Below the pieces are notes generated by a model. It was not told the origin of the DNA, ran no database searches, and saw only the letters and a list, made by a program, of their open reading frames with translations. This document shows, in pieces, positions 8,657 to 22,352 of a stretch of 64,000 nt of DNA (the stretch's first letter is position 1; each line of letters begins with the position of its first letter). This DNA is from Zavarzinia marina. GTDB taxonomy: Bacteria > Pseudomonadota > Alphaproteobacteria > Zavarziniales > Zavarziniaceae. The position numbers and the translations under genes are program-made. The stretch spans positions 310,001-374,000 of the forward strand of contig NZ_JAKGSB010000001.1 in assembly GCF_021568905.1 (NCBI RefSeq). Direction: 5' to 3'.

Positions 8657-10063
8657 CTAGTCCTTGTCGGGCCCGAGCATGGTGCCGGGGTCCAGCAGCG
8701 CGTCGAGACGCGCCTCGTCGATCAGACCCAGTTCGAGGGCGGCCTCGCGCAGAGTCTGGTTGTGGGTGTGGGCGTGCTTGGCGATCTTCGCCGCGTTGTC
8801 GTAGCCGATCTCGGGGGCGAGCGCGGTCACCAGCATCAGGGAGCGGCGGACACTCTCGTCCAGCTTCGCCGCATTGGCGGTCGCGCCGATGACGCAGCGA
8901 TCGGCGAAGGATCGCGCGGCATCGCCGAGCAGGGCGATCGACTGCAGGAGGGCCGCGCCGATCACCGGCTTGAACACGTTCAGCTCGAAATGGCCCTGGG
9001 TGGCGGCGAAGGCGATGGTGGCGTGATTGCCGACCACCCTTGTCGCGACCATGGTCAGGGCTTCGGCCTGGGTCGGGTTCACCTTGCCCGGCATGATGGA
9101 GGAGCCGGGCTCGTTCTCCGGCAGGGACAATTCCCCGAGGCCGGAACGCGGGCCTGAACCCATGAGGCGGATGTCGCTGGCGATCTTGAAACAGGCGATG
9201 GCCGCGACCTCGACGGCGGCCGACAGGGCCGCCGTGGCCTCATGGCCCGCCAGCGCCGCGAATTTGTTCGGGGCGGAGCGGAAGGGAATGCCGGTCAGCA
9301 GCGCCAGTTCCGCCGCCACCTTCTCCGCGAAGCCGGCGGCGGCATTCAGCCCGGTGCCGACGGCGGTGCCGCCCTGGGCAAGGTCGAGGACACCGTCCAG
9401 CGCGTGCTCGATACCGTGGATGGCGAAGGAAAGCTGCGCGGCATAGCCGCCGAATTCCTGGCCCAGGGTCAAGGGCACGGCATCCTGCAGATGGGTGCGC
9501 CCCATCTTCACCAGATGCGCCCATTCGAGGGCTTTTTGGGCCAGCGCTTCCTGCAGATGGCGCAGGCCCGGCAGCAGGCGATGGCTCACCTGCTCGGCGG
9601 CGGCGACATGGATCGCGGTCGGGAAGCAATCGTTCGACGACTGGCCGTGGTTCACATGGTCGTTGGGATGCACCGGCGATTTGGCGCCGCGCGCGCCGCC
9701 CAGCGCGTCGTTGGCCAGATTGGCGATCACCTCGTTGACGTTCATGTTGCTCTGGGTGCCGGAGCCGGTCTGCCACACCACCAGGGGGAATTCGGCGTCG
9801 TGCTTGCCGGCCGCGACCTCGGCGGCGGCATCGGCGATGGCGGCGGCGAGCGGGGCGGGGATCTTGCCCGTGGCACCGTTCACCCGGGCGGCCGCCTGTT
9901 TCACCAGGGCGAGGCCGCGGATGATCGGCGTCGGCATGCGCTCGGCCGCGCGGTCGCCGATCGGGAAATTCATAAGGCTGCGTTGCGTGTTCGCACCCCA
10001 CAGGCGATCGGCCGGCACCTCGATCGGGCCGAAGCTGTCGCGTTCCGTGCGGGTATTGCCCAT
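8657..10063 (-). CDS. fumC: Class II fumarate hydratase
   Basis: About 468 residues of the fumarase/aspartase superfamily, catalysing the reversible hydration of fumarate to L-malate in the TCA cycle without an iron-sulfur cluster. The signature GSSIMPGKVNP is present, as are the active-site blocks SGTQSNMNVNE and TAIHVA. The length matches E. coli FumC. An in-frame ATG exists at 10075, but the GGAGGA that it contains lies six bases upstream of the ATG at 10063, so 10063 is the better start. A second, unrelated fumarase of class I lies at 14878-16500. Confidence 0.97.
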   Translation of the reverse strand: MGNTRTERDSFGPIEVPADRLWGANTQRSLMNFPIGDRAAERMPTPIIRGLALVKQAAARVNGATGKIPAPLAAAIADAAAEVAAGKHDAEFPLVVWQTGSGTQSNMNVNEVIANLANDALGGARGAKSPVHPNDHVNHGQSSNDCFPTAIHVAAAEQVSHRLLPGLRHLQEALAQKALEWAHLVKMGRTHLQDAVPLTLGQEFGGYAAQLSFAIHGIEHALDGVLDLAQGGTAVGTGLNAAAGFAEKVAAELALLTGIPFRSAPNKFAALAGHEATAALSAAVEVAAIACFKIASDIRLMGSGPRSGLGELSLPENEPGSSIMPGKVNPTQAEALTMVATRVVGNHATIAFAATQGHFELNVFKPVIGAALLQSIALLGDAARSFADRCVIGATANAAKLDESVRRSLMLVTALAPEIGYDNAAKIAKHAHTHNQTLREAALELGLIDEARLDALLDPGTMLGPDKD

Positions 10064-10148
10064 TAGATCCTCCATATGGACGGTTGAATGGTAGCGTCCT
10101 TGAGCGACGCTTCCGTGTCAGTCACGGACAAAGAAGAAGGTAGGGGGG

Positions 10149-10808
10149 ATGGCCCGGCACATTCAGATCGTCTTGTCCAATCCCGCAAGCGGTGATCGGG
10201 ATCGCGAATACAACGAATGGTACGATGGACAGCATATCCCGGACCTCATGGGTCTGAAGGGCTTCGTCGGCGCAACCCGATACCGTGTGGTGCTGCCTTT
10301 CGCCGGCAAGGCACCCTGGTCCTATATGGTGCTCTACGAACTCGAAACCGAGGATCTTTCGGCCATGCTGGCCGAATTGGTCGATGCCCATGGCGACGGG
10401 CGGATCGCCGTCTCCGACGTCCTCGATCCCGCGAGCCTGACCGCCCTGGTATTCAGCCCGGTCGCGGCCTTCCAGGGTACGCCGGGTCATCGCCGGCAAT
10501 TGTTCGTCGCTCTCTCGAAACCGAGCGAGGGGCGGGAGGATGAATTCAACACCTGGTACGACGGTCGGCACGTGCCGGACGTGATCGCCATCGACGGGAT
10601 CTTCGGAGCGGAACGCTTCAAGCTGGCGATTCCCTTCCTGGATCCCATCGGTCTTGGCGAACGCTATCTGGCGGTCTACGACGTCGACTGCCCCGACCTT
10701 CGCGATCTCGCCGCCCGGGTGGCGGCGGATGCGCGCTCGGGCAGGGCCGTGATGTCGGACGCGATCGACATGAAGAGCCTGACGGCCTTCTTCCTGGAGC
10801 CGGTCTGA
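10149..10808 (+). CDS. Duplicated dimeric alpha/beta-barrel (EthD-like) protein
   Basis: A 219-residue protein made of two similar halves. EYNEWYDGQHIPDLMGLKGF in the first half corresponds to EFNTWYDGRHVPDVIAIDGI in the second, each followed by a conserved GA.R(Y/F) strand and a PF end. The N-terminal strands (HIQIVLSNP; QLFVALSKP) also match. This is the pattern of ferredoxin-like dimeric alpha/beta barrels (EthD/ABM-type), here a tandem single-chain version. The function is unknown; relatives act in degradation of, or isomerisation within, small organic compounds. The gene stands alone, divergent from fumC and convergent with the PucR regulator. Confidence 0.7.
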   Translation: MARHIQIVLSNPASGDRDREYNEWYDGQHIPDLMGLKGFVGATRYRVVLPFAGKAPWSYMVLYELETEDLSAMLAELVDAHGDGRIAVSDVLDPASLTALVFSPVAAFQGTPGHRRQLFVALSKPSEGREDEFNTWYDGRHVPDVIAIDGIFGAERFKLAIPFLDPIGLGERYLAVYDVDCPDLRDLAARVAADARSGRAVMSDAIDMKSLTAFFLEPV

Positions 10809-10822
10809 CCCGCCTTCAAGAC

Positions 10823-10853
10823 GTCGTCATCCAGGCGAAGGCTGGGATGACGA
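10823..10853. repeat. Degenerate copy of the CATCCCGGCGAAGGCC-type intergenic inverted repeat
   Basis: GTCGTCATCC (10823-10832) and GGATGACGAC (10844-10853) are perfect arms around AGGCGAAGGCT. The sequence is a variant of the element at 38114-38200. It lies between two convergent genes, where it could also terminate transcription. Confidence 0.65.
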
Positions 10854-10866
10854 CGCATTGGGGGGC

Positions 10867-12084
10867 TCAATCCGGCACGCCGAAGATGCCGACGAGGTGG
10901 AGCGCCAGTTCGAGGTTCAGGCGGCGTTCGCCGACGGGGCGGCCGAGGTCCTGCTCGATCTGCTCGAGGCGGTAGCGCACCGTGTTGTGATGCAGGCCGA
11001 GGGCGGCGGCGGCGGAGCGGTAGTTGCAATTGGCGGCATAGAAGGCGTCGAGGGTCTGGCGCTGGCGCCGGGCCGTGGCGCCCGTGCCGGCCAGGGAGCC
11101 CAACTCCTCCTTGATGAAGGTGTCGATCCGCGCCGGATCGGCGGAGCATAGCGCCGCGACACTGACCTCCTCGAAGAAGAGGGCGGCGCCTTCCGCCGAT
11201 TTCGCCCGTTCGGCAACGCGAAGGGCGTCGAGCGCGTCGCGATGGCTGCGCGCGAACCCCTCGATCCCGGCCCCCGGCCGGCCGATGCCGGCGAAGATGC
11301 CGGCATGGCGGGGCAGGCGCCCGCGCTGTACGGCGGGGCGAACCGTCAGCCAGCACCAGCTCGTCCGCGTGTCGACCCGCACCATCAGGCTGTGCTCGGC
11401 GCGCAGCACTTCCGCCCAGTCCTGGGCGACCGCCTCCATCGGAACGGCGCCGCGCGGTCGGCGCGGGTCTTCGGTCAGGACGATCGCGACATGGCGCCCG
11501 CGCAGGGGATAGCCGATGCGGGCCGAGGCGGCATCGGCGTCGACGGCGGGATCGTCCAGCACGCGGCGGATGCCTTCGACCAGGGTGAAGGAGCGTTCGC
11601 GCGCGATCCTTTCCAGCTCGCGCCGATGTTCCTCCGACAGGCGCGAGGTGACGAGGTCGAGCCAGGCCAGCATGTAGGCGGTGCCGGCCTTGACCACCGC
11701 GACCGCCTCGTGCCCGCGCGGGCCATGGTCGCCGACCGCATCGGCCCAGATGTCGATCAGCCGCTGCATGCCGATCGGATAGGCGCGGAAGACGAAGGTG
11801 CCGGACACGCCCAGCTTCACCAGGTCGCGCGTCAGGGCCATGACCTCTTCCGAGGGCACGATGGCGTCGCTCGGCTCGCCCCGCCTGAGATTGTCGAAGA
11901 TGCTGGCGATATTCGCCCGGCACGTCACCCGCACCGTCTGCGCGACCGCGTCGCCGCCGACCTCGGGCATGCGGGCGGTGATATGCGCCGCGACGGCATC
12001 GCCGATGTCGCGGGCGGCCGGCGCCAGCACGGTGGCGACCTTGCACACCCAGTGCCGAATGTCGGCCTCGTCTTTCGTCGCCAT
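10867..12084 (-). CDS. PucR/CdaR-type helix-turn-helix transcriptional regulator
   Basis: A 405-residue regulator. The C-terminal domain (YRSAAAALGLHHNTVRYRLE, then QIEQDLGRPV) is the PucR-type helix-turn-helix, placed at the end of the protein as in CdaR/PucR members. The middle matches the degenerate GGDEF-like region of the family, and the N-terminal ~160 residues are a helical sensor-like domain. It is divergent from the monooxygenase-esterase gene at 12221, with 136 bases between. It therefore probably activates that gene in response to its substrate; this is inference from position. A CGCCAT/ATGGCG palindrome begins three bases before its start codon. Confidence 0.87.
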   Translation of the reverse strand: MATKDEADIRHWVCKVATVLAPAARDIGDAVAAHITARMPEVGGDAVAQTVRVTCRANIASIFDNLRRGEPSDAIVPSEEVMALTRDLVKLGVSGTFVFRAYPIGMQRLIDIWADAVGDHGPRGHEAVAVVKAGTAYMLAWLDLVTSRLSEEHRRELERIARERSFTLVEGIRRVLDDPAVDADAASARIGYPLRGRHVAIVLTEDPRRPRGAVPMEAVAQDWAEVLRAEHSLMVRVDTRTSWCWLTVRPAVQRGRLPRHAGIFAGIGRPGAGIEGFARSHRDALDALRVAERAKSAEGAALFFEEVSVAALCSADPARIDTFIKEELGSLAGTGATARRQRQTLDAFYAANCNYRSAAAALGLHHNTVRYRLEQIEQDLGRPVGERRLNLELALHLVGIFGVPD

Positions 12085-12086
12085 AA

Positions 12087-12102
12087 CGCCATGACTATGG
12101 CG
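12087..12102. promoter_or_regulatory. Candidate operator of the PucR-type regulator
   Basis: CGCCAT and ATGGCG form a perfect inverted repeat around GACT, directly upstream of the regulator start codon in the divergent intergenic region. It may serve autoregulation or control of the monooxygenase-esterase gene. Confidence 0.35.
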
Positions 12103-12220
12103 CCTTTACGCCAATTGGTCAAAGGCGGCCTTTGCTTCTATCCATTCGCCCGAAGACGGCACGGGGGATTTTTGTCAGATTTTTCCAACTAAGAGCAAAA
12201 AACAGTGGGAGGAGGTCGAA

Positions 12221-14815
12221 ATGGCCGTGAATTACGATGTCGTCGTCGTTGGTGCAGGCTTTTCCGGTTTGTACGCAATGCACAAATTCCGTGACCAGAT
12301 GGGACTGAAGGTCAAGGGCTTCGAGGCCGCCGGCGGCCCGGGCGGCACCTGGTGGTGGAACCGCTATCCCGGGGCACGCTGCGACATCGAATCCCTCCAT
12401 TATTCCTATTCCTTCTCGGAAGAGATCCAGAAGCGCTGGCAATGGTCGGAACGTTTCGCGGCCCAGCCCGAAATCCTCTCCTATCTCGAATTCGTCGCCG
12501 ACACCCTGGACCTGCGGAAGGACTTCACCTTCGACATCCGTGTGACCAGTGCCGTCTGGGACGACGAGGCGCATCGCTGGACGATCACCACCAATGACGG
12601 CGCGGCCTGCACCACCCGCTTCCTGATCGCCGCCAGCGGCAATCTCTCCATCCCCAAGCCGCCGGACTTCGAGGGCATCGAGGATTTCGCGGGCGAGGTC
12701 TATACCACCAGCCAATGGCCCCACCACGAGGTCGACCTGAAGGGCAAGCGCGTCGCCGTCATCGGTACCGGCTCGACCGGCATTCAGGTGATCCAGGAGG
12801 TGGCCAAGCAGGCGGCCCATATGACCGTGTTCCAGCGCACGGCCAATTTCGCCCTGCCCCTTGGCAATGAGGAGATCGAGCCGGAGCGCCGGGCCTGGAT
12901 CTCGGAAAACCACGCGCAGCTTCGCGCCGGCTGCCGCGAGAGCTTCATGGGCATTCCCTTCGAGCCGCCGGAGGTTTCGGGCGCCATGGTCCCGGCCGAA
13001 CAGCGCCATGCCAAATACGAGAAATTGTGGTCGGGCGGCGGCTGGCCGCTGCTGGTCTGTTCCTATGCCGACGTATTGTCGGACCAGGCGATCAACGACG
13101 ATCTGGCGGATTTCGTGCGCGGCAAGATCCGCGACCGGGTGAAGGATCCCAAGGTCGCCGACCTGCTCTGCCCCAAGGATCACCCGATCGCCACGAAGCG
13201 TCTCGCCTTCGAGAGCGATTATTTCGACGTCTTCAATCAGGACAATGTCGATCTCGTCGATCTGCGCTCGACGCCGATCGTGCGCCTGTCGAGGACCGGG
13301 ATCGTGACGACCGAGAAGGAATATCCGATCGACGTGCTGATCGTCGCCATCGGCTTCGACGCGGCGACCGGCCCGCTGGTCCACATGGGCCTGACCGGGC
13401 GCGGCGGCGTCACCCTGGCCGAGCGCTGGAAGGACGGGCCGCGCAACTATCTGGGGATCGCCATGCACGATTTCCCCAATCTCTTCACCATCACCGGCCC
13501 GACCAGTGCTGTCGCCCTCTACAACAACCCCCTCGCGATCGAGGATCACGTGGACCTGGCGGCGGATGCCGTCCGCTACACCCTGGCGAATGACGCCGAG
13601 ACCATCGAGGCGACGGCCGAGGCGGAGGACCGCTGGGCGACCATCGTCCACGGTCTGCTGCACATGACGCTCTTCCCCAAGGCGAACTCCTGGTACATGG
13701 GCGCCAATGTCGAGGGCAAGCGCGTCGCGACCTATATCTTCATCGGTTCGGCCCAGCTCTATCGCACCATGACCGGCGAAGTGCAGTCGACCGGTTACGG
13801 CGGTTTCGCCGTCGGCAAGGCGCGCAACGGCCTGCCGCCCATGATGAAGCTGGATCCGGCGGTGACCGCCCTGCTCGGCGTCCTGATGGGGCAGGGGGCG
13901 AAGCCGCTGCACGACTGCACGGTCGAGGAAACGCGGGCCGTGGTCGACAGTTTCTCCATGCTTCAGGGCGCGGCGCGCGACGTCGACGTGGTCGAGACGA
14001 CCTATCCCTCGGCGGGCGCCGACCGGGCGGTGCGGATCTATCGCCCCGACCGTCCGGGGCCGCTGCCGGTCGTCGTCTTCTACCATGGCGGCGGTTTCAT
14101 CGCCGGCAGCCTGGATATGGCGGACAAGCCGTGCCGGGCGCTGGCCGAGGATCTCGGCGCCATCGTGGTCGCTCCTTCCTATCGCCTGGCGCCGGAGAAT
14201 CCGTTCCCGGCGGCGACCGACGACACATTCGCGGCGCTGTGCTGGACGGCGGCCCATATCGCCACCTATGGCGGGGATCCCAGCCGGATCGCGGTTTCGG
14301 GCGAGAGCGCGGGCGGGCTTCTGGCCGCCGTCGCCGCGCTTCGGGCAAGGGACGAGGGCGGGCCCAGGTTGACGGCCCAGGTGCTGATCACACCCGCCAT
14401 CGACGGGCAGTCGAAGACCGCGTCCAAGGTCGAGTTCTCGGAAGGCCCGATCCTCTCCGCCCGGGCGGCGGAAGGCATGTTCGCCGCCTATATGGGCGAG
14501 GGAGGTGATTTCTCCTCGCCCCTGGCGTCGCCGGTCAATGCCAAGTCGCTGGCGGGCCTGCCGCCGGCCCTGGTGCTGTCGGCGGAATGCGACCCGCTGC
14601 GCGACGAGGGGGAGATCTATGCCAGGCAGCTCGCCGCCGCCGGTATCGAGGTCAAGGCGATCCGTCTCGACGGGCTGGTCCATGCGACCCTCAGCATGGC
14701 CGGCGTGATCCCGCGGGCGCGCGAGATCACCGAGCACATGCAGGCGTTCCTGGATGCGGCATTCCTGCAGGCCCGCGTGAAGGCAACGCCGCAGGCCACG
14801 GTCGCGGCGCAGTAA
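12221..14815 (+). CDS. Baeyer-Villiger-type flavin monooxygenase fused to an alpha/beta-hydrolase esterase
   Basis: An 864-residue two-enzyme protein. Residues 1-~540 are a flavoprotein monooxygenase: the FAD Rossmann motif GAGFSG near residue 11, the GGTWWWNRYPGARCD block typical of Baeyer-Villiger enzymes, and the NADPH motif GTGSTG near residue 181. The family fingerprint FxGxxxHxxxWP is present as FAGEVYTTSQWP (156-167), with Thr162 in place of His. Residues ~590-864 are a hormone-sensitive-lipase-family esterase with the HGGG oxyanion motif near 621, the GESAG nucleophile elbow, Asp in ECDPLRD and His821. The fusion should turn a ketone into an ester and then cleave it. A strong AGGAGG precedes the ATG; the divergent PucR-type gene is the likely regulator. 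Confidence 0.9.
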   Translation: MAVNYDVVVVGAGFSGLYAMHKFRDQMGLKVKGFEAAGGPGGTWWWNRYPGARCDIESLHYSYSFSEEIQKRWQWSERFAAQPEILSYLEFVADTLDLRKDFTFDIRVTSAVWDDEAHRWTITTNDGAACTTRFLIAASGNLSIPKPPDFEGIEDFAGEVYTTSQWPHHEVDLKGKRVAVIGTGSTGIQVIQEVAKQAAHMTVFQRTANFALPLGNEEIEPERRAWISENHAQLRAGCRESFMGIPFEPPEVSGAMVPAEQRHAKYEKLWSGGGWPLLVCSYADVLSDQAINDDLADFVRGKIRDRVKDPKVADLLCPKDHPIATKRLAFESDYFDVFNQDNVDLVDLRSTPIVRLSRTGIVTTEKEYPIDVLIVAIGFDAATGPLVHMGLTGRGGVTLAERWKDGPRNYLGIAMHDFPNLFTITGPTSAVALYNNPLAIEDHVDLAADAVRYTLANDAETIEATAEAEDRWATIVHGLLHMTLFPKANSWYMGANVEGKRVATYIFIGSAQLYRTMTGEVQSTGYGGFAVGKARNGLPPMMKLDPAVTALLGVLMGQGAKPLHDCTVEETRAVVDSFSMLQGAARDVDVVETTYPSAGADRAVRIYRPDRPGPLPVVVFYHGGGFIAGSLDMADKPCRALAEDLGAIVVAPSYRLAPENPFPAATDDTFAALCWTAAHIATYGGDPSRIAVSGESAGGLLAAVAALRARDEGGPRLTAQVLITPAIDGQSKTASKVEFSEGPILSARAAEGMFAAYMGEGGDFSSPLASPVNAKSLAGLPPALVLSAECDPLRDEGEIYARQLAAAGIEVKAIRLDGLVHATLSMAGVIPRAREITEHMQAFLDAAFLQARVKATPQATVAAQ

Positions 14816-14829
14816 ACAAGCAAAAAGAA

Positions 14830-14862
14830 GGGGCGCGGCGTCCGGTCGGACCGCCGCGCCCC
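14830..14862. terminator. Bidirectional intrinsic terminator
   Basis: GGGGCGCGGCG (14830-14840) pairs with CGCCGCGCCCC (14852-14862), an 11-bp perfect stem with an 11-base loop. An A-rich stretch precedes it and TTTCGCGTTTT follows. It separates the convergent monooxygenase-esterase and class I fumarase genes. Confidence 0.8.
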
Positions 14863-14877
14863 TTTCGCGTTTTCAGG

Positions 14878-16500
14878 TCACATCAGGTTGGCGAAGAAGT
14901 CGTTGCCCTTGTCGTCGACCACGATGAAGGCGGGGAAATTCTCCACCTCGATCTTCCAGACCGCTTCCATGCCGAGTTCGGGATATTCCAGCACCTCGAC
15001 CTTGCGGATGCAGTTCTGCGCCAGGATCGCCGCCGGCCCGCCGATCGAGCCCAGATAGAAGCCGCTGTGCGCCTTGCAGGCATCGGTCACCTGCTTCGAG
15101 CGGTTGCCCTTGGCCAGCATGACCATGGAACCGCCGGCCGCCTGGAACTGCTCGACGTAACTATCCATGCGCCCCGCCGTGGTCGGCCCGAAGGAGCCGG
15201 AGGCAAAGCCCGTCGGCGTCTTGGCCGGGCCGGCGTAATAGACCGGGTGGTCCTTGATGTATTGGGGCAGGCCGTCGCCGGCGTCGAGCCGTTCCTTCAG
15301 CTTGGCGTGGGCGATGTCGCGCGCCACGATCATCGGCCCGCTGAGCGACAGGCGGGTGCGGATCGGATATTGGCTGAGGGTCTTCAGGATCTCGGCCATG
15401 GGCTTGTTCAGGTCGATCTGGACGACCTCGCCCTCGAGATCGTCATGGGTGACCTCGGGCAGATATTTCGCGGGATCGTGCTCCAGATCCTCCAGGAAGA
15501 CGCCGTCCCTGGTGATCTTGCCCAGGATCTGGCGATCGGCGGAGCAGGAGACGCCGATGCCGACCGGGCAGGAGGCGCCGTGGCGCGGCAGGCGGATGAC
15601 GCGGACGTCGTGGCAGAAATACTTGCCGCCGAACTGGGCGCCGATGCCGGACATCTGGGTCAGCTTGTGGATCTCGGCCTCGAGCTCGCGGTCGCGGAAG
15701 GCGCGGCCGAGCTCGTTGCCGCTGGTCGGCAGATCGTCGAGATATTTGCACGACGCCAGTTTCACCGTCTTCAGGTTCAATTCGGCCGAGGTGCCGCCGA
15801 TGACGATCGCCAGGTGATAGGGCGGGCAGGCGGCGGTGCCGAGCGTCTTGATCTTCGCCTCGACGAATTTCAGCAGGGAAGCCGGGTTCAGCAGCGCCTT
15901 GGTCTCCTGATAGAGATAGGTCTTGTTGGCCGAACCGCCGCCCTTGGCGACGAAGAGGAATTTATACTCGTCGCCCGGCGTCGCGTAGAGGTCGATCTGG
16001 GCCGGCAGATTGTTGCCGGTGTTCTTCTCGCGATACATGTCGAGGGGCGCCATCTGGGAATAGCGCAGGTTGGTCTCGGTATAGGTGCGGGCGACCCCGC
16101 GCGAGATCGCTTCCTCGTCCTTGCCGTCGGTCCAGACATATTGGCCGCGCTTGCCCATGACGATGGCCGTGCCCGTGTCCTGGCACGACGGCAGCACCAT
16201 GCCGGCGGCGACATTGGCGTTCTTCAAGAGTTCCAGCGCCACGAACTTGTCGTTGGGCGAGGCTTCCGCGTCGTCGAGGATCAGGCGCAATTGCGCCAGA
16301 TGGCCGGGGCGCAGCAGATGGGAGACGTCGCGATAGGCGGCGAAGGTCAGGGCCTCGATCGCCTCGGGCGCCACTTCCAGCACGCGCTTGCCGCCGACCA
16401 CGATCTCCTTCACCCCGTCCGAGGTGATCTTGCGCCAGGGCGTCTCCACCTTGTTGGCGGGATCGTGCTCGAACATTTCCTGATAGGCGAACGCCGTCAT
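14878..16500 (-). CDS. Class I (iron-sulfur) fumarate hydratase
   Basis: A 540-residue fumarase of the [4Fe-4S] class, catalysing the same fumarate-to-malate step as FumC but with an oxygen-sensitive cluster. The cluster cysteines are likely those in PSCQDTGT (near residue 133), AACPPYH (near 253) and one of the CPVGIGVSC pair. The N-terminal alpha and C-terminal beta domains are fused, as in the long class I enzymes. The product is full-length, so both fumarase types are intact in this window. It lies downstream of sspB on the same strand with 47 bases between, so cotranscription is possible. Confidence 0.95.
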
Positions 16501-18948: not shown

Positions 18949-19139
18949 GGAAACTCCGTGGTTGCAACAGCGCCCATTCTATCGCCGAAACCGGGCGTCG
19001 CGAGCCCGATTGCCCCGGAACCGGCGGCTTTCGCCCCCTCTTTGCGCCCAGGCTTGCGCCTGGATTGCGAACGTCGCAGCGTGGCCGGGCCGTCCCCCGA
19101 CGGGCGGCACGGCAGAAAGACGAGGGGAGGAAGACGGCC

Positions 19140-22100
19140 TTGTTCGAGCGTGTCCTGATCGCCAACCGCGGCGAGATCGCCATCCGCATCGCCGAGGCCT
19201 GCGTGGCCCTCGGCATCGAGAGCGTCGCCGTGCACGGCGCCGACGACGGCCGATCCCTCCATGTCGCGGCGGCGGATCGGGCCGTGGCCCTGCCGGGACG
19301 GGGCGTCGGCGCCTATCTCGACGGCGCTGCGGTGATCGCGGCGGCACGGGCGGCGGGCTGCGACGCGATCCATCCGGGCTATGGCTTCCTGGCCGAAAAT
19401 CCGGTCTTCGCCGCCGACTGTCTGGCGGCCGGCATCATGTTCATCGGCCCGGCGCCCGAAACGCTCGCCCTGTTCGGCGACAAGGTGGCGGCCCGGCGCC
19501 TCGCCCAGGATGCCGGCGTGCCGGTGGTCGAGGGGACGGCGCGCACGGTCGAGGCGGGCTGTGCCGAAGCCTTCATGAAGAAGCTCGGCCCCGGCGCCCG
19601 GGTCATGGTGAAGGCGGCGGCCGGCGGCGGCGGGCGTGGCATGCGCGTGGTCGAACGGCCCGAGGACATGGCCGAAGCCTTCGCGCGCTGCGCCTCGGAA
19701 GCCAAGGCCGCCTTCGGCGACGGTTCCCTCTTCGTCGAACGGTTCATCCCCGCCGCCCGCCATGTCGAGGTTCAGGTCCTGGGTGACGTGGAAGGCACCG
19801 TCACCCATCTGTTCGAGCGCGATTGCAGCCTGCAGCGCCGCCACCAGAAACTGGTCGAGATCGCGCCGGCCCCGGGCCTGTCCGACGCGACGCGCCTGAA
19901 ATTGTTCGAAGCGGCGCTGAATCTCGCCCGGGCCGCACGATATCGCACCATCGGCACGGTCGAATTCCTGGTCGCGCCGGACGAAAGCGCCTTCTGGTTC
20001 ATGGAGGCCAACCCCCGTCTCCAGGTCGAGCATCCGGTGACGGAGGCGGTGACCGGCGTCGATCTGGTCGCCGCCCAGATCCGCCTCGCCGCCGGGCAGC
20101 CGCTGGCCGCCCTCGGCCTTGCCGGCGTCAGGCCCCAGGGCTTCGCGATCGAGGCCCGGATCAATCTGGAAATCATGGATGCTGCCGGCAATGCCCGCCC
20201 GGCGGCCGGCACCGTCACCACCTGGGAAATGCCCGGCGGTGCCGGCGTCCGCGTCGATGGCGCGGGCTATACCGGCCTCGTGGTCGATCCCGGCTTCGAT
20301 TCCATGATCGCCAAGGTGATCGCGCGGGGCGATGACTATCCCCGTGCCGTCACCGCCCTTCGCCGGGCGCTCCGGCGCTGCCGGATCGACGGGGTCGCCA
20401 GCAATCTCGGCTTTCTCGAAGCTCTCCTCGGTCTCGACGATGTCGCCGCCGGGCGGATCGACAATCGCCTGGTCGAACGGCACGGCGCGGAACTGGCGGC
20501 GGCGCGCCGCGCGCCCGGTTTCTTCATGGCGGACGAGGGCGGGCCGAAGATCGAGACCGTGCAGGCCCCGGCCGGCAGCGAGGCGGTGCCGGCCCCCCTG
20601 TCGGGCCGGATCGTCGCCTTCGAGGTGGCGCCGGGCGATGCGGTCGCGGCCGGGGCCACGATCGCCGTGCTCGAAGCGATGAAGATGGAACATGTGGTGA
20701 AATCGCCCATGGCCGGCATCATCCGCCTGCTGGGCGCCCAGGAAGGGGCCGTGATCGCCGAAGGCGCCGCCCTGCTGTTCGTCGAGCCGGGCGAGGTCGT
20801 GGCCGAGAGGGTGGAGGAAGCGGGCGACATCGACCCCGATCACATCCGCCCCGATCTCGCCGATGTCATCGCGCGCCATGCCCCGGGTCTCGATGAAAAC
20901 CGCCCCGCCGCCGTCGCCCGCCGCGAAAAGACCGGCCAGCGCACGGCGCGTGCCAATGTCGACGATCTGATGGATCCCGGCTCCTTCACCGAATATGGCG
21001 CCCTGCTGCTGCCGGCGCAGCGCCAGCGCCGGGGGCTGGACGATCTGATCGCCAATGGCCCGGCCGACGGGCTGATCACCGGCATCGGCACGGTGAATGC
21101 GCCCGCCTTCGGGCCGGAAGCGGCCAAGACCATGGTGCTCGCCTATGATTACACGGTCATGGCCGGCACCCAGGGCATGATGAACCACAAGAAGACCGAC
21201 CGCGTGCTGCATCTGGCCGACGAATGGCGCCTGCCCCTGGTGCTCTTCGCCGAGGGCGGCGGCGGGCGCCCGGGCGATACGGATTGGGTCGGTGTCGCCG
21301 GGCTGGACGTGCCGACCTTCGCCACTTTCGCCGGATTGTCCGGCAAGGTGCCGCTGGTCGGCGTCGTCTCCGGTTACAGTTTCGCGGGCAATGCCGCCTT
21401 GCTCGGCTGCTGCGACCTGATCGTCGCGACGCGCAACTGTTCCTTCGGCATGGCCGGCCCCGCCATGATCGAGGGCGGCGGCCTCGGCAGCTTCCGGCCG
21501 GAGGAGGTGGGCCCGGCGGCCATGCAGTGGGCCAACGGCAATATCGACCTATTGGTCGAGGACGAGGCGGCGGCGGTGGCCGCGACCCGGAAGCTGCTCG
21601 GCTATTTCCAGGGCGATACGGCGGATTGGGCGGCGGCCGACCAGCGCCTGCTGCGCCATGTGGTGCCGGAGAACCGGCTGCGCGTCTATGCCATGCGTGA
21701 TGCCATCCGCCTGCTGTGCGACGCCGACAGTGTCATGGAACTGCGTGCCGGTTTCGGCCGCGCCCTGATCACCGCCCTGGTCCGGATCGAGGGCCGGCCC
21801 TTCGGCCTCATTGCCAATGATCCCGCCCATCTCGGCGGTGCCGTCGATGCCGATGCCTCGGTCAAGGGCGCCCGTTTCCTGAGATTGTGCGAGGCGCGCG
21901 GCCTGCCGGTGGTCAGTCTCGTGGATACGCCGGGCTTCATGGTCGGCCCCGATTGCGAGGCGGAGGGCATGGTGCGCAAGGCCGCCGACATCTTCATCGC
22001 CGGCGCCAATCTGACCGTGCCCTTCGGCGCCGTGGTGCTGCGCAAGGGCTATGGTCTCGGCGCCCAGGCCATGACCGCCGGCTCCTTCCATCGCCCGCTC

Positions 22101-22352
22101 TTCACCATCGCCTGGCCCAGTGGCGAATTCGGCGGCATGGGTCTTGAAGGCGCGGTCCGCCTCGGCTATCGCCGCGAACTGGAGGCGGAGACCGACCCGG
22201 CGGCGCAGAAGGCGCTCTACGACAGGCTGGTCGCCCAGCAATATGCCAACGGCAAGGGCATCAACATGGCCTCCTTCGGGGAGATCGACGCGGTGATCGA
22301 CCCGGCCGAGACGCGGGCCTGGATCGTCCGAGGGCTGACCGTGCCGGCGTGA
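19140..22352 (+). CDS. Single-chain biotin-dependent acyl-CoA carboxylase
   Basis: A 1070-residue multidomain enzyme. Order: biotin carboxylase (residues 1-~450; ATP-grasp loop KAAAGGGGRGM, EANPRLQVEHPVTE), biotin carrier domain (AMKMEH near residue 515), then N- and C-terminal carboxyltransferase halves (GSFTEYGAL... and DTPGFMVGPDCEAEGM). This order in one chain matches the long-chain acyl-CoA carboxylase (LCC) type, which differs from split acetyl-, propionyl- and methylcrotonyl-CoA carboxylases. It carboxylates an acyl-CoA using ATP and bicarbonate; the chain length is uncertain. The start is TTG at 19140 with GGGGAGGA at 19124-19131; the upstream ATG at 19065 would add an Arg-rich non-homologous tail. 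Confidence 0.9.
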   Translation: MFERVLIANRGEIAIRIAEACVALGIESVAVHGADDGRSLHVAAADRAVALPGRGVGAYLDGAAVIAAARAAGCDAIHPGYGFLAENPVFAADCLAAGIMFIGPAPETLALFGDKVAARRLAQDAGVPVVEGTARTVEAGCAEAFMKKLGPGARVMVKAAAGGGGRGMRVVERPEDMAEAFARCASEAKAAFGDGSLFVERFIPAARHVEVQVLGDVEGTVTHLFERDCSLQRRHQKLVEIAPAPGLSDATRLKLFEAALNLARAARYRTIGTVEFLVAPDESAFWFMEANPRLQVEHPVTEAVTGVDLVAAQIRLAAGQPLAALGLAGVRPQGFAIEARINLEIMDAAGNARPAAGTVTTWEMPGGAGVRVDGAGYTGLVVDPGFDSMIAKVIARGDDYPRAVTALRRALRRCRIDGVASNLGFLEALLGLDDVAAGRIDNRLVERHGAELAAARRAPGFFMADEGGPKIETVQAPAGSEAVPAPLSGRIVAFEVAPGDAVAAGATIAVLEAMKMEHVVKSPMAGIIRLLGAQEGAVIAEGAALLFVEPGEVVAERVEEAGDIDPDHIRPDLADVIARHAPGLDENRPAAVARREKTGQRTARANVDDLMDPGSFTEYGALLLPAQRQRRGLDDLIANGPADGLITGIGTVNAPAFGPEAAKTMVLAYDYTVMAGTQGMMNHKKTDRVLHLADEWRLPLVLFAEGGGGRPGDTDWVGVAGLDVPTFATFAGLSGKVPLVGVVSGYSFAGNAALLGCCDLIVATRNCSFGMAGPAMIEGGGLGSFRPEEVGPAAMQWANGNIDLLVEDEAAAVAATRKLLGYFQGDTADWAAADQRLLRHVVPENRLRVYAMRDAIRLLCDADSVMELRAGFGRALITALVRIEGRPFGLIANDPAHLGGAVDADASVKGARFLRLCEARGLPVVSLVDTPGFMVGPDCEAEGMVRKAADIFIAGANLTVPFGAVVLRKGYGLGAQAMTAGSFHRPLFTIAWPSGEFGGMGLEGAVRLGYRRELEAETDPAAQKALYDRLVAQQYANGKGINMASFGEIDAVIDPAETRAWIVRGLTVPA

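What the first reader, a model, noticed from the sequence alone, without database searches (positions are those of the whole stretch)
12221..14815. Baeyer-Villiger monooxygenase fused to an esterase
One 864-residue chain carries a flavin monooxygenase of the Baeyer-Villiger type and an intact HSL-family esterase (HGGG, GESAG, Asp, His821). The ester made from a ketone by the first half would be the substrate of the second, giving an acid and an alcohol from one protein. A divergent PucR-type regulator suggests inducible ketone catabolism.
Basis: partly seen in the sequence, partly recalled or inferred. Interest (0 to 1): 0.65.

Follow-up and report, generated by a model that had tools for sequence, protein, structure and literature searches.

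The report
Ketone oxidase fused to an esterase
One bacterial protein joins an enzyme that should turn ketones into esters to one that should split those esters, a pairing usually made by two neighbouring genes, and related fused proteins occur in distant bacteria.

Summary
Window 12221-14815 (+) is one frame of 864 residues: a Baeyer-Villiger-type monooxygenase (1-532) abutting an HSL-family esterase (538-849), both predicted intact. It is no artefact: 24 distinct single-frame fusions were found, in the window's genus, other Alphaproteobacteria, Solirubrobacterales and Acidimicrobiia. Both halves are under purifying selection. The fusions form two clades; the monooxygenase halves reject one origin (AU p 0.006), the esterase halves do not (p 0.30), so two fusions, or one followed by exchange of a half. 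All 24 keep the esterase Ser, Asp and His and the monooxygenase Lys-Arg and Asp, but none keeps the histidine of the second BVMO fingerprint (37 of 57 separate relatives do). The divergent PucR gene accompanies the fusion in 3 of 4 same-clade loci where it could be looked for (window included); PucR plus fusion is an accessory insert in the genus. Published BVMO plus esterase gene pairs are the functional model. Best reading: ketone to ester to acid plus alcohol in one chain. Activity and substrate are not shown. Ten searches of open papers gave no description of a natural fusion.

The parts
12221..14815 (+). Fused BVMO-esterase gene, 864 aa plus stop
12210..12215 (+). Shine-Dalgarno AGGAGG, 5 nt before ATG
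   Evidence: read; the stretch is conserved in G003
12221..13816 (+). Baeyer-Villiger-type monooxygenase domain, residues 1-532
12341..12385 (+). First BVMO fingerprint GGTWWWNRYPGARCD, residues 41-55 (Asp55; taken as PAMO Asp66, numbering recalled)
12686..12721 (+). Second BVMO fingerprint FAGEVYTTSQWP, residues 156-167; Thr162 stands where the consensus has His
13196..13201 (+). Lys326-Arg327 (PAMO Lys336-Arg337): NADPH phosphate contact and catalytic Arg
   Evidence: PAMO Lys336 role from PMC6215540; role of Arg337 from established knowledge
13817..13831 (+). Very short linker, residues 533-537, between the two folds
   Evidence: aligned ranges 2-532 and 538-849; no internal ribosome-binding site seen by eye
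13832..14767 (+). HSL-family esterase domain, residues 538-849
14084..14095 (+). HGGG oxyanion motif, residues 622-625
14300..14314 (+). GESAG with catalytic Ser696
14591..14593 (+). Catalytic Asp791 (DPLRDEG)
14681..14683 (+). Catalytic His821
10867..12084 (-). PucR-type regulator, divergent from the fusion
   Evidence: conserved in G003 (65%) and Bradyrhizobium CB82 (42%)
12085..12220 (.). Divergent intergenic region shared by regulator and fusion
   Evidence: no inverted repeat found

Best explanation
A self-contained two-step enzyme. The FAD/NADPH-dependent N-terminal half inserts oxygen next to the carbonyl of a ketone, giving an ester; the C-terminal HSL-type esterase, abutted by only about five residues, hydrolyses that ester to a carboxylic acid and an alcohol. 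Expression is probably controlled by the divergent PucR regulator. It is the single-chain version of the BVMO plus esterase gene pair. Shown here: sequence, predicted fold, catalytic residues, purifying selection on both halves, recurrence, and conservation of the regulator within one clade. Inferred: both activities, their order, that the ester passes from one half to the other, and inducibility. Guess: a bulky or aromatic (methyl) ketone, because the nearest solved relatives are steroid and phenylacetone monooxygenases.
For: One frame with both domains. 24 distinct fusions, all with Ser, Asp, His and Lys-Arg in place. dN/dS (NG86, own script) of window against congener 0.30 (BVMO) and 0.32 (esterase), fumC beside it 0.24. 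Model with pTM 0.87 and close matches of both halves to solved enzymes. Separate BVMO and esterase genes on the same strand next to each other in 10 fetched loci, in both orders, and annotated together under 19 of the 25 plasmid rows shown (a ranking that favours pairs). Published gene pairs for this chemistry. PucR conserved divergently in clade A.
Against: Fingerprint histidine absent in all 24, and a residue used to define the family may matter for activity. No metabolite, expression or activity data. No pathway genes beside the window gene: the near neighbours are fumarases, an EthD-like protein, SspB and an isochorismatase-family protein. The esterase lies below the cut-offs of the named esterase families.
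Confidence: 0.65

Rival explanations
1. The first half is an altered flavin monooxygenase (heteroatom oxidation, or a weak or uncoupled enzyme) because the fingerprint histidine is gone; the esterase acts on something else and the fusion only co-regulates two activities.
For: 0 of 24 fusions keep the histidine, against 37 of 57 separate relatives. The substituting residue varies freely (F, V, T, S, R, Y, L).
Against: Lys-Arg and Asp kept in 24 of 24; model within 1.4-2.1 A of PAMO and STMO structures; dN/dS of the two halves is similar in all four pairs computed. 20 of 57 separate relatives also lack the His, among them five with an esterase gene directly upstream (L034, L040, L044, L045, L060) and L074 with one downstream; four others with a neighbouring esterase keep it (L069, L070, L096, L097).
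Confidence: 0.15
2. Reverse order: the esterase first removes an acyl group from an ester-masked substrate and the monooxygenase then oxidises the product.
For: Nothing in the sequence fixes the order. In 5 of the 10 loci with same-strand neighbouring genes the esterase gene comes first.
Against: The published BVMO-esterase pairs work ketone to ester to hydrolysis. The BVMO is first in the chain in 24 of 24 fusions, which fits but does not prove the order.
Confidence: 0.07
3. Same chemistry, but for detoxification or modification of a natural product or drug rather than growth on a ketone.
For: PucR plus fusion is an accessory insert in a variable slot with no pathway genes beside it. The esterase half has secondary similarity to the chloramphenicol hydrolase model (225 bits, cut-off 500).
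Against: In Bradyrhizobium the fusion lies within a few kb of catechol-pathway and P450 genes; in a Solirubrobacterales genome near an aldehyde dehydrogenase, SDRs, another BVMO and a luciferase-like monooxygenase.
Confidence: 0.1
4. Artefact: two genes joined by a sequencing error, or a chance long frame in GC-rich DNA.
For: GC-rich window with many long spurious frames.
Against: Same fusion in a congener and 22 further distinct frames; two profile-confirmed domains.
Confidence: 0.01

Closest known systems
Phenylacetone monooxygenase (PAMO) and steroid monooxygenase (STMO), type I BVMOs
   Same: Fold, Rossmann motifs, first fingerprint, Lys-Arg, Asp; 45-49% identity in the structural alignments
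   Different: The solved chains are single-domain, and both keep the fingerprint His in the alignments seen; here it is Thr162 and an esterase follows
AcmA/AcmB of Gordonia TY-5 (acetone to methyl acetate to methanol plus acetate)
   Same: BVMO and esterase made together, in a bicistronic operon (PMC6215540, passages)
   Different: Two proteins; small ketone
AcpA/AcpB (acetophenone) of strain GD02, and SAPMO plus the next-gene ester hydrolase of Comamonas testosteroni KF-1
   Same: PAMO-like BVMO and an NlhH-like esterase, or SAPMO and a carboxylester hydrolase in the next gene (PMC9618137; PMC3746432; passages)
   Different: Two proteins; the AcpAB reactions are proposed from expression in that paper, SAPMO and its hydrolase are described as identified
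HSL-family (family IV) esterases: Est8, EST2, LipP1
   Same: HGGG, GxSAG, Asp, His, whole fold
   Different: Free-standing; here carried on a monooxygenase, and under the LipP1 cut-off (305.6 against 350)

Membership tests
Type I Baeyer-Villiger monooxygenase | Two Rossmann motifs and fold | tested here: met
   GAGFSG and GTGSTG; PAMO 4d03 Z 48.7 over 525 residues
Type I Baeyer-Villiger monooxygenase | First fingerprint [A/G]GxWxxxx[F/Y]P[G/M]xxxD | tested here: met
   GGTWWWNRYPGARCD; consensus from PMC4498894
Type I Baeyer-Villiger monooxygenase | Second fingerprint FxGxxxHxxxW[P/D] | tested here: not met
   FAGEVYTTSQWP, Thr in place of His; same failure at His in 24 of 24 fusions and 20 of 57 separate relatives. 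By the strict fingerprint it is BVMO-like, not a canonical member
Type I Baeyer-Villiger monooxygenase | Catalytic Arg (PAMO 337), Lys336, Asp66 | tested here: met
   Arg327, Lys326, Asp55; Lys-Arg and this Asp in 24 of 24
Type I Baeyer-Villiger monooxygenase | NADPH- and O2-dependent ketone-to-ester activity | not testable with these tools
   needs purified protein
HSL-family (bacterial family IV) esterase | HGGG oxyanion motif, GxSAG nucleophile, Asp and His | tested here: met
   His622, Ser696, Asp791, His821; Abhydrolase_3 E 1e-67. Among the 24 fusions HGGG is HPGG in L024 and HAGG in L087
HSL-family (bacterial family IV) esterase | Alpha/beta-hydrolase fold with N-terminal cap | tested here: met
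   538-849 against Est8 Z 43.0, 309 aligned, 1.6 A
LipP1 family (NF058653) | Score at or above curated cut-off 350 | tested here: not met
   305.6 bits
PucR-type regulator (gene 10867-12084) | C-terminal HTH_30 and GGDEF_2 above gathering scores | tested here: met
   59.3 and 50.9 bits
BVMO plus esterase pathway pair (AcmAB, AcpAB type) | Esterase hydrolyses the BVMO's ester product | not testable with these tools
   inferred from fusion and gene adjacency only

The most novel reading that the evidence does not exclude
A family of natural single-chain ketone-cleaving enzymes not described in the papers I could search. BVMO and esterase fused twice independently, and in both lineages the monooxygenase does without the histidine used to define BVMOs. 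If so, the esterase partner, by removing or accepting the ester at once, may have relaxed or replaced a constraint that most free-standing BVMOs obey, and motif-based surveys have excluded the whole group.
Probability: 0.3. Interest if true: 0.7.

Novelty: new variant of a known kind. Interest (0 to 1): 0.52.

Why it matters
The published pairs seen here use two proteins for these two steps; a natural single chain kept in distant bacteria is a ready scaffold for one-enzyme ketone cleavage. It also tests whether the fingerprint histidine used to define BVMOs (sequences curated by it; PHI-BLAST with it) is really required, since such surveys would pass over all 24 fusions found here. The fusion is a strong hint of shared pathway for the many neighbouring BVMO and esterase genes without an assigned role.

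Tried and rejected
Rejected: chance frame or missed stop. Separate translation of the esterase half: ATGATG at the junction (13841) has no ribosome-binding site near it by eye, and the Met-Met is kept only in the congener among the 24. EthD-like gene 10149-10808 as part of the system: it sits beside fumC in 6 of 6 genus members (cut by a contig end in G002), with or without the fusion. One single fusion event for all: rejected by the BVMO halves (p 0.006, quick tree), not by the esterase halves (p 0.30), so exchange of a half stays open. Link between His loss and fusion as a statistic: only 2 independent pairs, cannot reach significance. Steroid or aryl-ketone specificity from similarity: not enough; PAMO and STMO score alike. 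Regulator site in the intergenic region: no inverted repeat, one imperfect 13-nt direct repeat, not pursued; the promoter scan of 11900-15000 gave 2 sites against 0.6 expected, one of them (12122-12094, minus strand) just before the PucR start, not pursued.

Literature: ten answered searches of the open library (searches returned no paper) gave no description of a natural BVMO-esterase fusion in the listings; of the listed papers I opened only some, for passages. The one paper with the term 'BVMO-hydrolase' (PMC9836352, outline and passages) describes neighbouring genes. Subscription papers and supplements, including the domain-architecture file of PMC4498894, were not readable, so prior mention is possible. 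PMC4966971, PMC10028610 and PMC10682829 were seen as passages and do not settle the role of this histidine. Loss of activity on mutating it (in HAPMO and cyclohexanone monooxygenase) is recalled only; the 2002 motif paper is not held.

Dropped rows: 8 duplicate loci before counting fusions. For the trees: BVMO rows with 250 bits or less or a query span of 470 or less, esterase rows with 90 bits or less or a span of 220 or less, and identical sequences. L074, reported with stops inside, counted as separate genes; L079 is reported with one TGA, but its frame of 873 aa covers both halves, so it is counted as fused; L026 runs to its contig end. Gene picks are by codon GC, not curated. One search repeated with a stricter limit.

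Full report
WHAT IS THERE. The frame at 12221-14815 (+) is open for 864 codons, with AGGAGG 5 nt before its ATG. Pfam and NCBIfam find a flavin monooxygenase half and an Abhydrolase_3/HSL half. Against solved structures, residues 3-531 match steroid monooxygenase and phenylacetone monooxygenase best, and the second half matches esterases of the HSL kind. A model built from the window protein aligned with 26 proteins of related-loci loci has mean pLDDT 89.5 and pTM 0.87. In it residues 2-532 superpose on PAMO 4d03 (Z 48.7, 525 aligned, 1.4 A) and 538-849 on Est8 4ypv (Z 43.0, 309 aligned, 1.6 A). The two folds therefore abut with about five residues between them.

IT IS A RECURRENT PROTEIN. The window's genome has one copy. 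Of 60 genomes (the window's own and relatives), 9 have a match at E 1e-100 or better, but only the window's own and G003 (same genus, 75%) have the full-length fusion; the other hits cover the BVMO half. A named-genome scan gave 37 loci with relatives, of which five carry a single-frame fusion: Solirubrobacterales L024, Acidimicrobiia or Acidimicrobiaceae L025, L026 (to its contig end) and L027, Actinomycetes L050. In a sample of 385 genomes of the window's class, nine match at E 1e-165 or better; four of these carry the fusion (G000, G003, G190, G363), the other five match with the BVMO half. In 296 genomes drawn from the class of the L025 genome (record titled Acidimicrobiia), 14 have a match at E 1e-175 or better and all 14 carry a single-frame fusion, a lower bound given that limit; one of them (G631) has in addition a copy reported with stops inside (L074), which I counted as separate genes. 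Bradyrhizobium sp. CB82 carries a fusion on a plasmid predicted conjugative, annotated only as 'alpha/beta hydrolase fold domain-containing protein'. The genome of L024 has a second one, L087. After removing 8 duplicate loci, 24 distinct fusions remain.

RESIDUES. All 24 keep the nucleophile Ser, the Asp and the His of the esterase, and the Lys-Arg and Asp of the monooxygenase. HGGG is kept in 22; L024 has HPGG and L087 HAGG. In the Bradyrhizobium copy the first glycine motif is not read in the long frame. None of the 24 has the histidine of the second BVMO fingerprint FxGxxxHxxxW: the residue is F 7, V 7, T 2, S 2, R 2, Y 2, L 2. Among 57 separate relatives in the same tree, 37 have His and 20 do not. 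The separate set comes from searches with this protein, so it is not a random sample of BVMOs. The fingerprint has been used to curate BVMO sets (PMC4498894, passages) and as a PHI-BLAST filter (PMC7570161, passages); such filters would pass over every fusion found here.

ORIGIN. In both trees the fusions fall in two clades: A, 5 rows (window, G003, Bradyrhizobium, two from one Solirubrobacterales genome), all GESAG; and B, 19 rows (Acidimicrobiia and other Actinomycetota, plus G190 and G363 of the window's class), all GWSAG. Linkers differ between the clades. Holding all fusions together is rejected for the BVMO halves (AU p 0.006, quick tree) but not for the esterase halves (p 0.30). Two fusions is the simplest reading; one fusion plus exchange of a half is not excluded. 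The fusion has the BVMO first in 24 of 24. Ten fetched loci have the two genes separate but side by side on one strand: esterase first in L034, L040, L044, L045 and L060; BVMO first in L069, L070, L074, L096 and L097. Three more (L011, L055, L098) have an esterase on the other strand or further off. L069, L070, L096, L097 and L098 were fetched because both halves of the query matched or matched closely there, so these are not random. In L096 the stop of one gene and the start of the next almost touch, a state from which loss of the stop would give a fusion (inference). Of the 25 best plasmid rows, 19 show both genes annotated under the match; that ranking favours pairs.

SELECTION. Window against G003: dN/dS (NG86, own script) 0.30 for residues 1-531 and 0.32 for 546-845; the nearby fumC gives 0.24 and PucR 0.38. 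Three clade B pairs give 0.05-0.16 (BVMO) and 0.07-0.17 (esterase). Both halves are maintained.

SURROUNDINGS. The PucR-type gene 10867-12084 (-) is divergent from the fusion. It is conserved in the same place in G003 (65%) and in Bradyrhizobium (42%, both PucR domains). Of the two Solirubrobacterales copies, L024 starts at a contig edge and L087 has a BipA gene upstream, so the regulator is present in 3 of 4 clade A loci where it could be looked for, the window included. No relative of it was found in the fetched clade B stretches, but 13 of those reach only about 1.5 kb beyond the fusion. In the genus, fumC and the EthD-like gene are together in 6 of 6 genomes. The slot between that gene and the class I fumarase holds PucR plus fusion in the window, the same plus other genes in G003, an unrelated insert in G001, and only about 160 bp in G004; the G002 and G005 contigs end there. 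G001, G002, G004 and G005 gave no full-length fusion (G002 and G005 are about 75% complete). So PucR plus fusion is an accessory unit. Other neighbours: catechol-pathway and P450 genes in Bradyrhizobium; an aldehyde dehydrogenase, SDRs, a second BVMO, a separate esterase and a luciferase-like protein around L087. These fit oxidative catabolism but name no substrate.

HOW IT PROBABLY WORKS. Published pairs give the model. AcmA makes methyl acetate from acetone and AcmB hydrolyses it, from one operon (PMC6215540, passages). acpAB, a PAMO-like BVMO and an NlhH-like esterase, are up-regulated over 4000-fold on acetophenone and proposed to give phenol plus acetate (PMC9618137, passages). SAPMO and the next-gene ester hydrolase turn 4-sulfoacetophenone into acetate and 4-sulfophenol (PMC3746432, passages). 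The window protein should do both steps in one chain. The order of steps, transfer of the ester, and substrate are inferred. The missing histidine is the main reason for doubt about the first step.

KNOWN OR NEW. Both halves belong by fold and sequence to known kinds, except that the strict BVMO fingerprint fails; the join was not described in the listings of ten open-library searches, with the limits told under Tried and rejected. I rate it a new variant of a known kind.

Noticed in passing
window 10809-14877 and L105, L106, L086: Variable slot between an EthD-like gene and class I fumarase: PucR plus fusion here, a 469-aa ORF plus a 117-aa ORF in G001 (looks like a toxin with a possible immunity partner, by eye only), empty in G004.
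   Followed up: partly
window 10149-10808 (+): EthD-like protein (name by eye) with two similar halves, each with N-x-W-Y-D-G-[QR]-H-x-P-D, only a weak DUF4286 Pfam match; kept next to fumC in 6 of 6 genus members.
   Followed up: partly
L068 about 11869-12030 (Bradyrhizobium CB82 plasmid): The start of the fusion gene does not read the first glycine motif in the long frame; frameshift or sequencing error.
   Followed up: no
L034, L040, L044, L045, L060 and Nocardia L038, L041, L043, L046, L047, L057: A clade of separate BVMOs that also lack the fingerprint His (Phe, in L060 Arg); its member L038 is nearest to steroid monooxygenase among solved structures; in L034, L040, L044, L045 and L060 an esterase gene lies directly upstream.
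   Followed up: partly
L074 (G631): BVMO and esterase as two adjacent frames, the BVMO being the nearest separate relative of the clade B fusions in the tree.
   Followed up: no
window 8660-10075 and 14878-16500: Both a FumC-type (class II) and a class I fumarase within 8 kb.
   Followed up: no
window 19065-22349 (+): One 1095-aa chain with biotin carboxylase, biotin carrier and carboxyltransferase domains, a one-piece acyl-CoA carboxylase-like protein.
   Followed up: no
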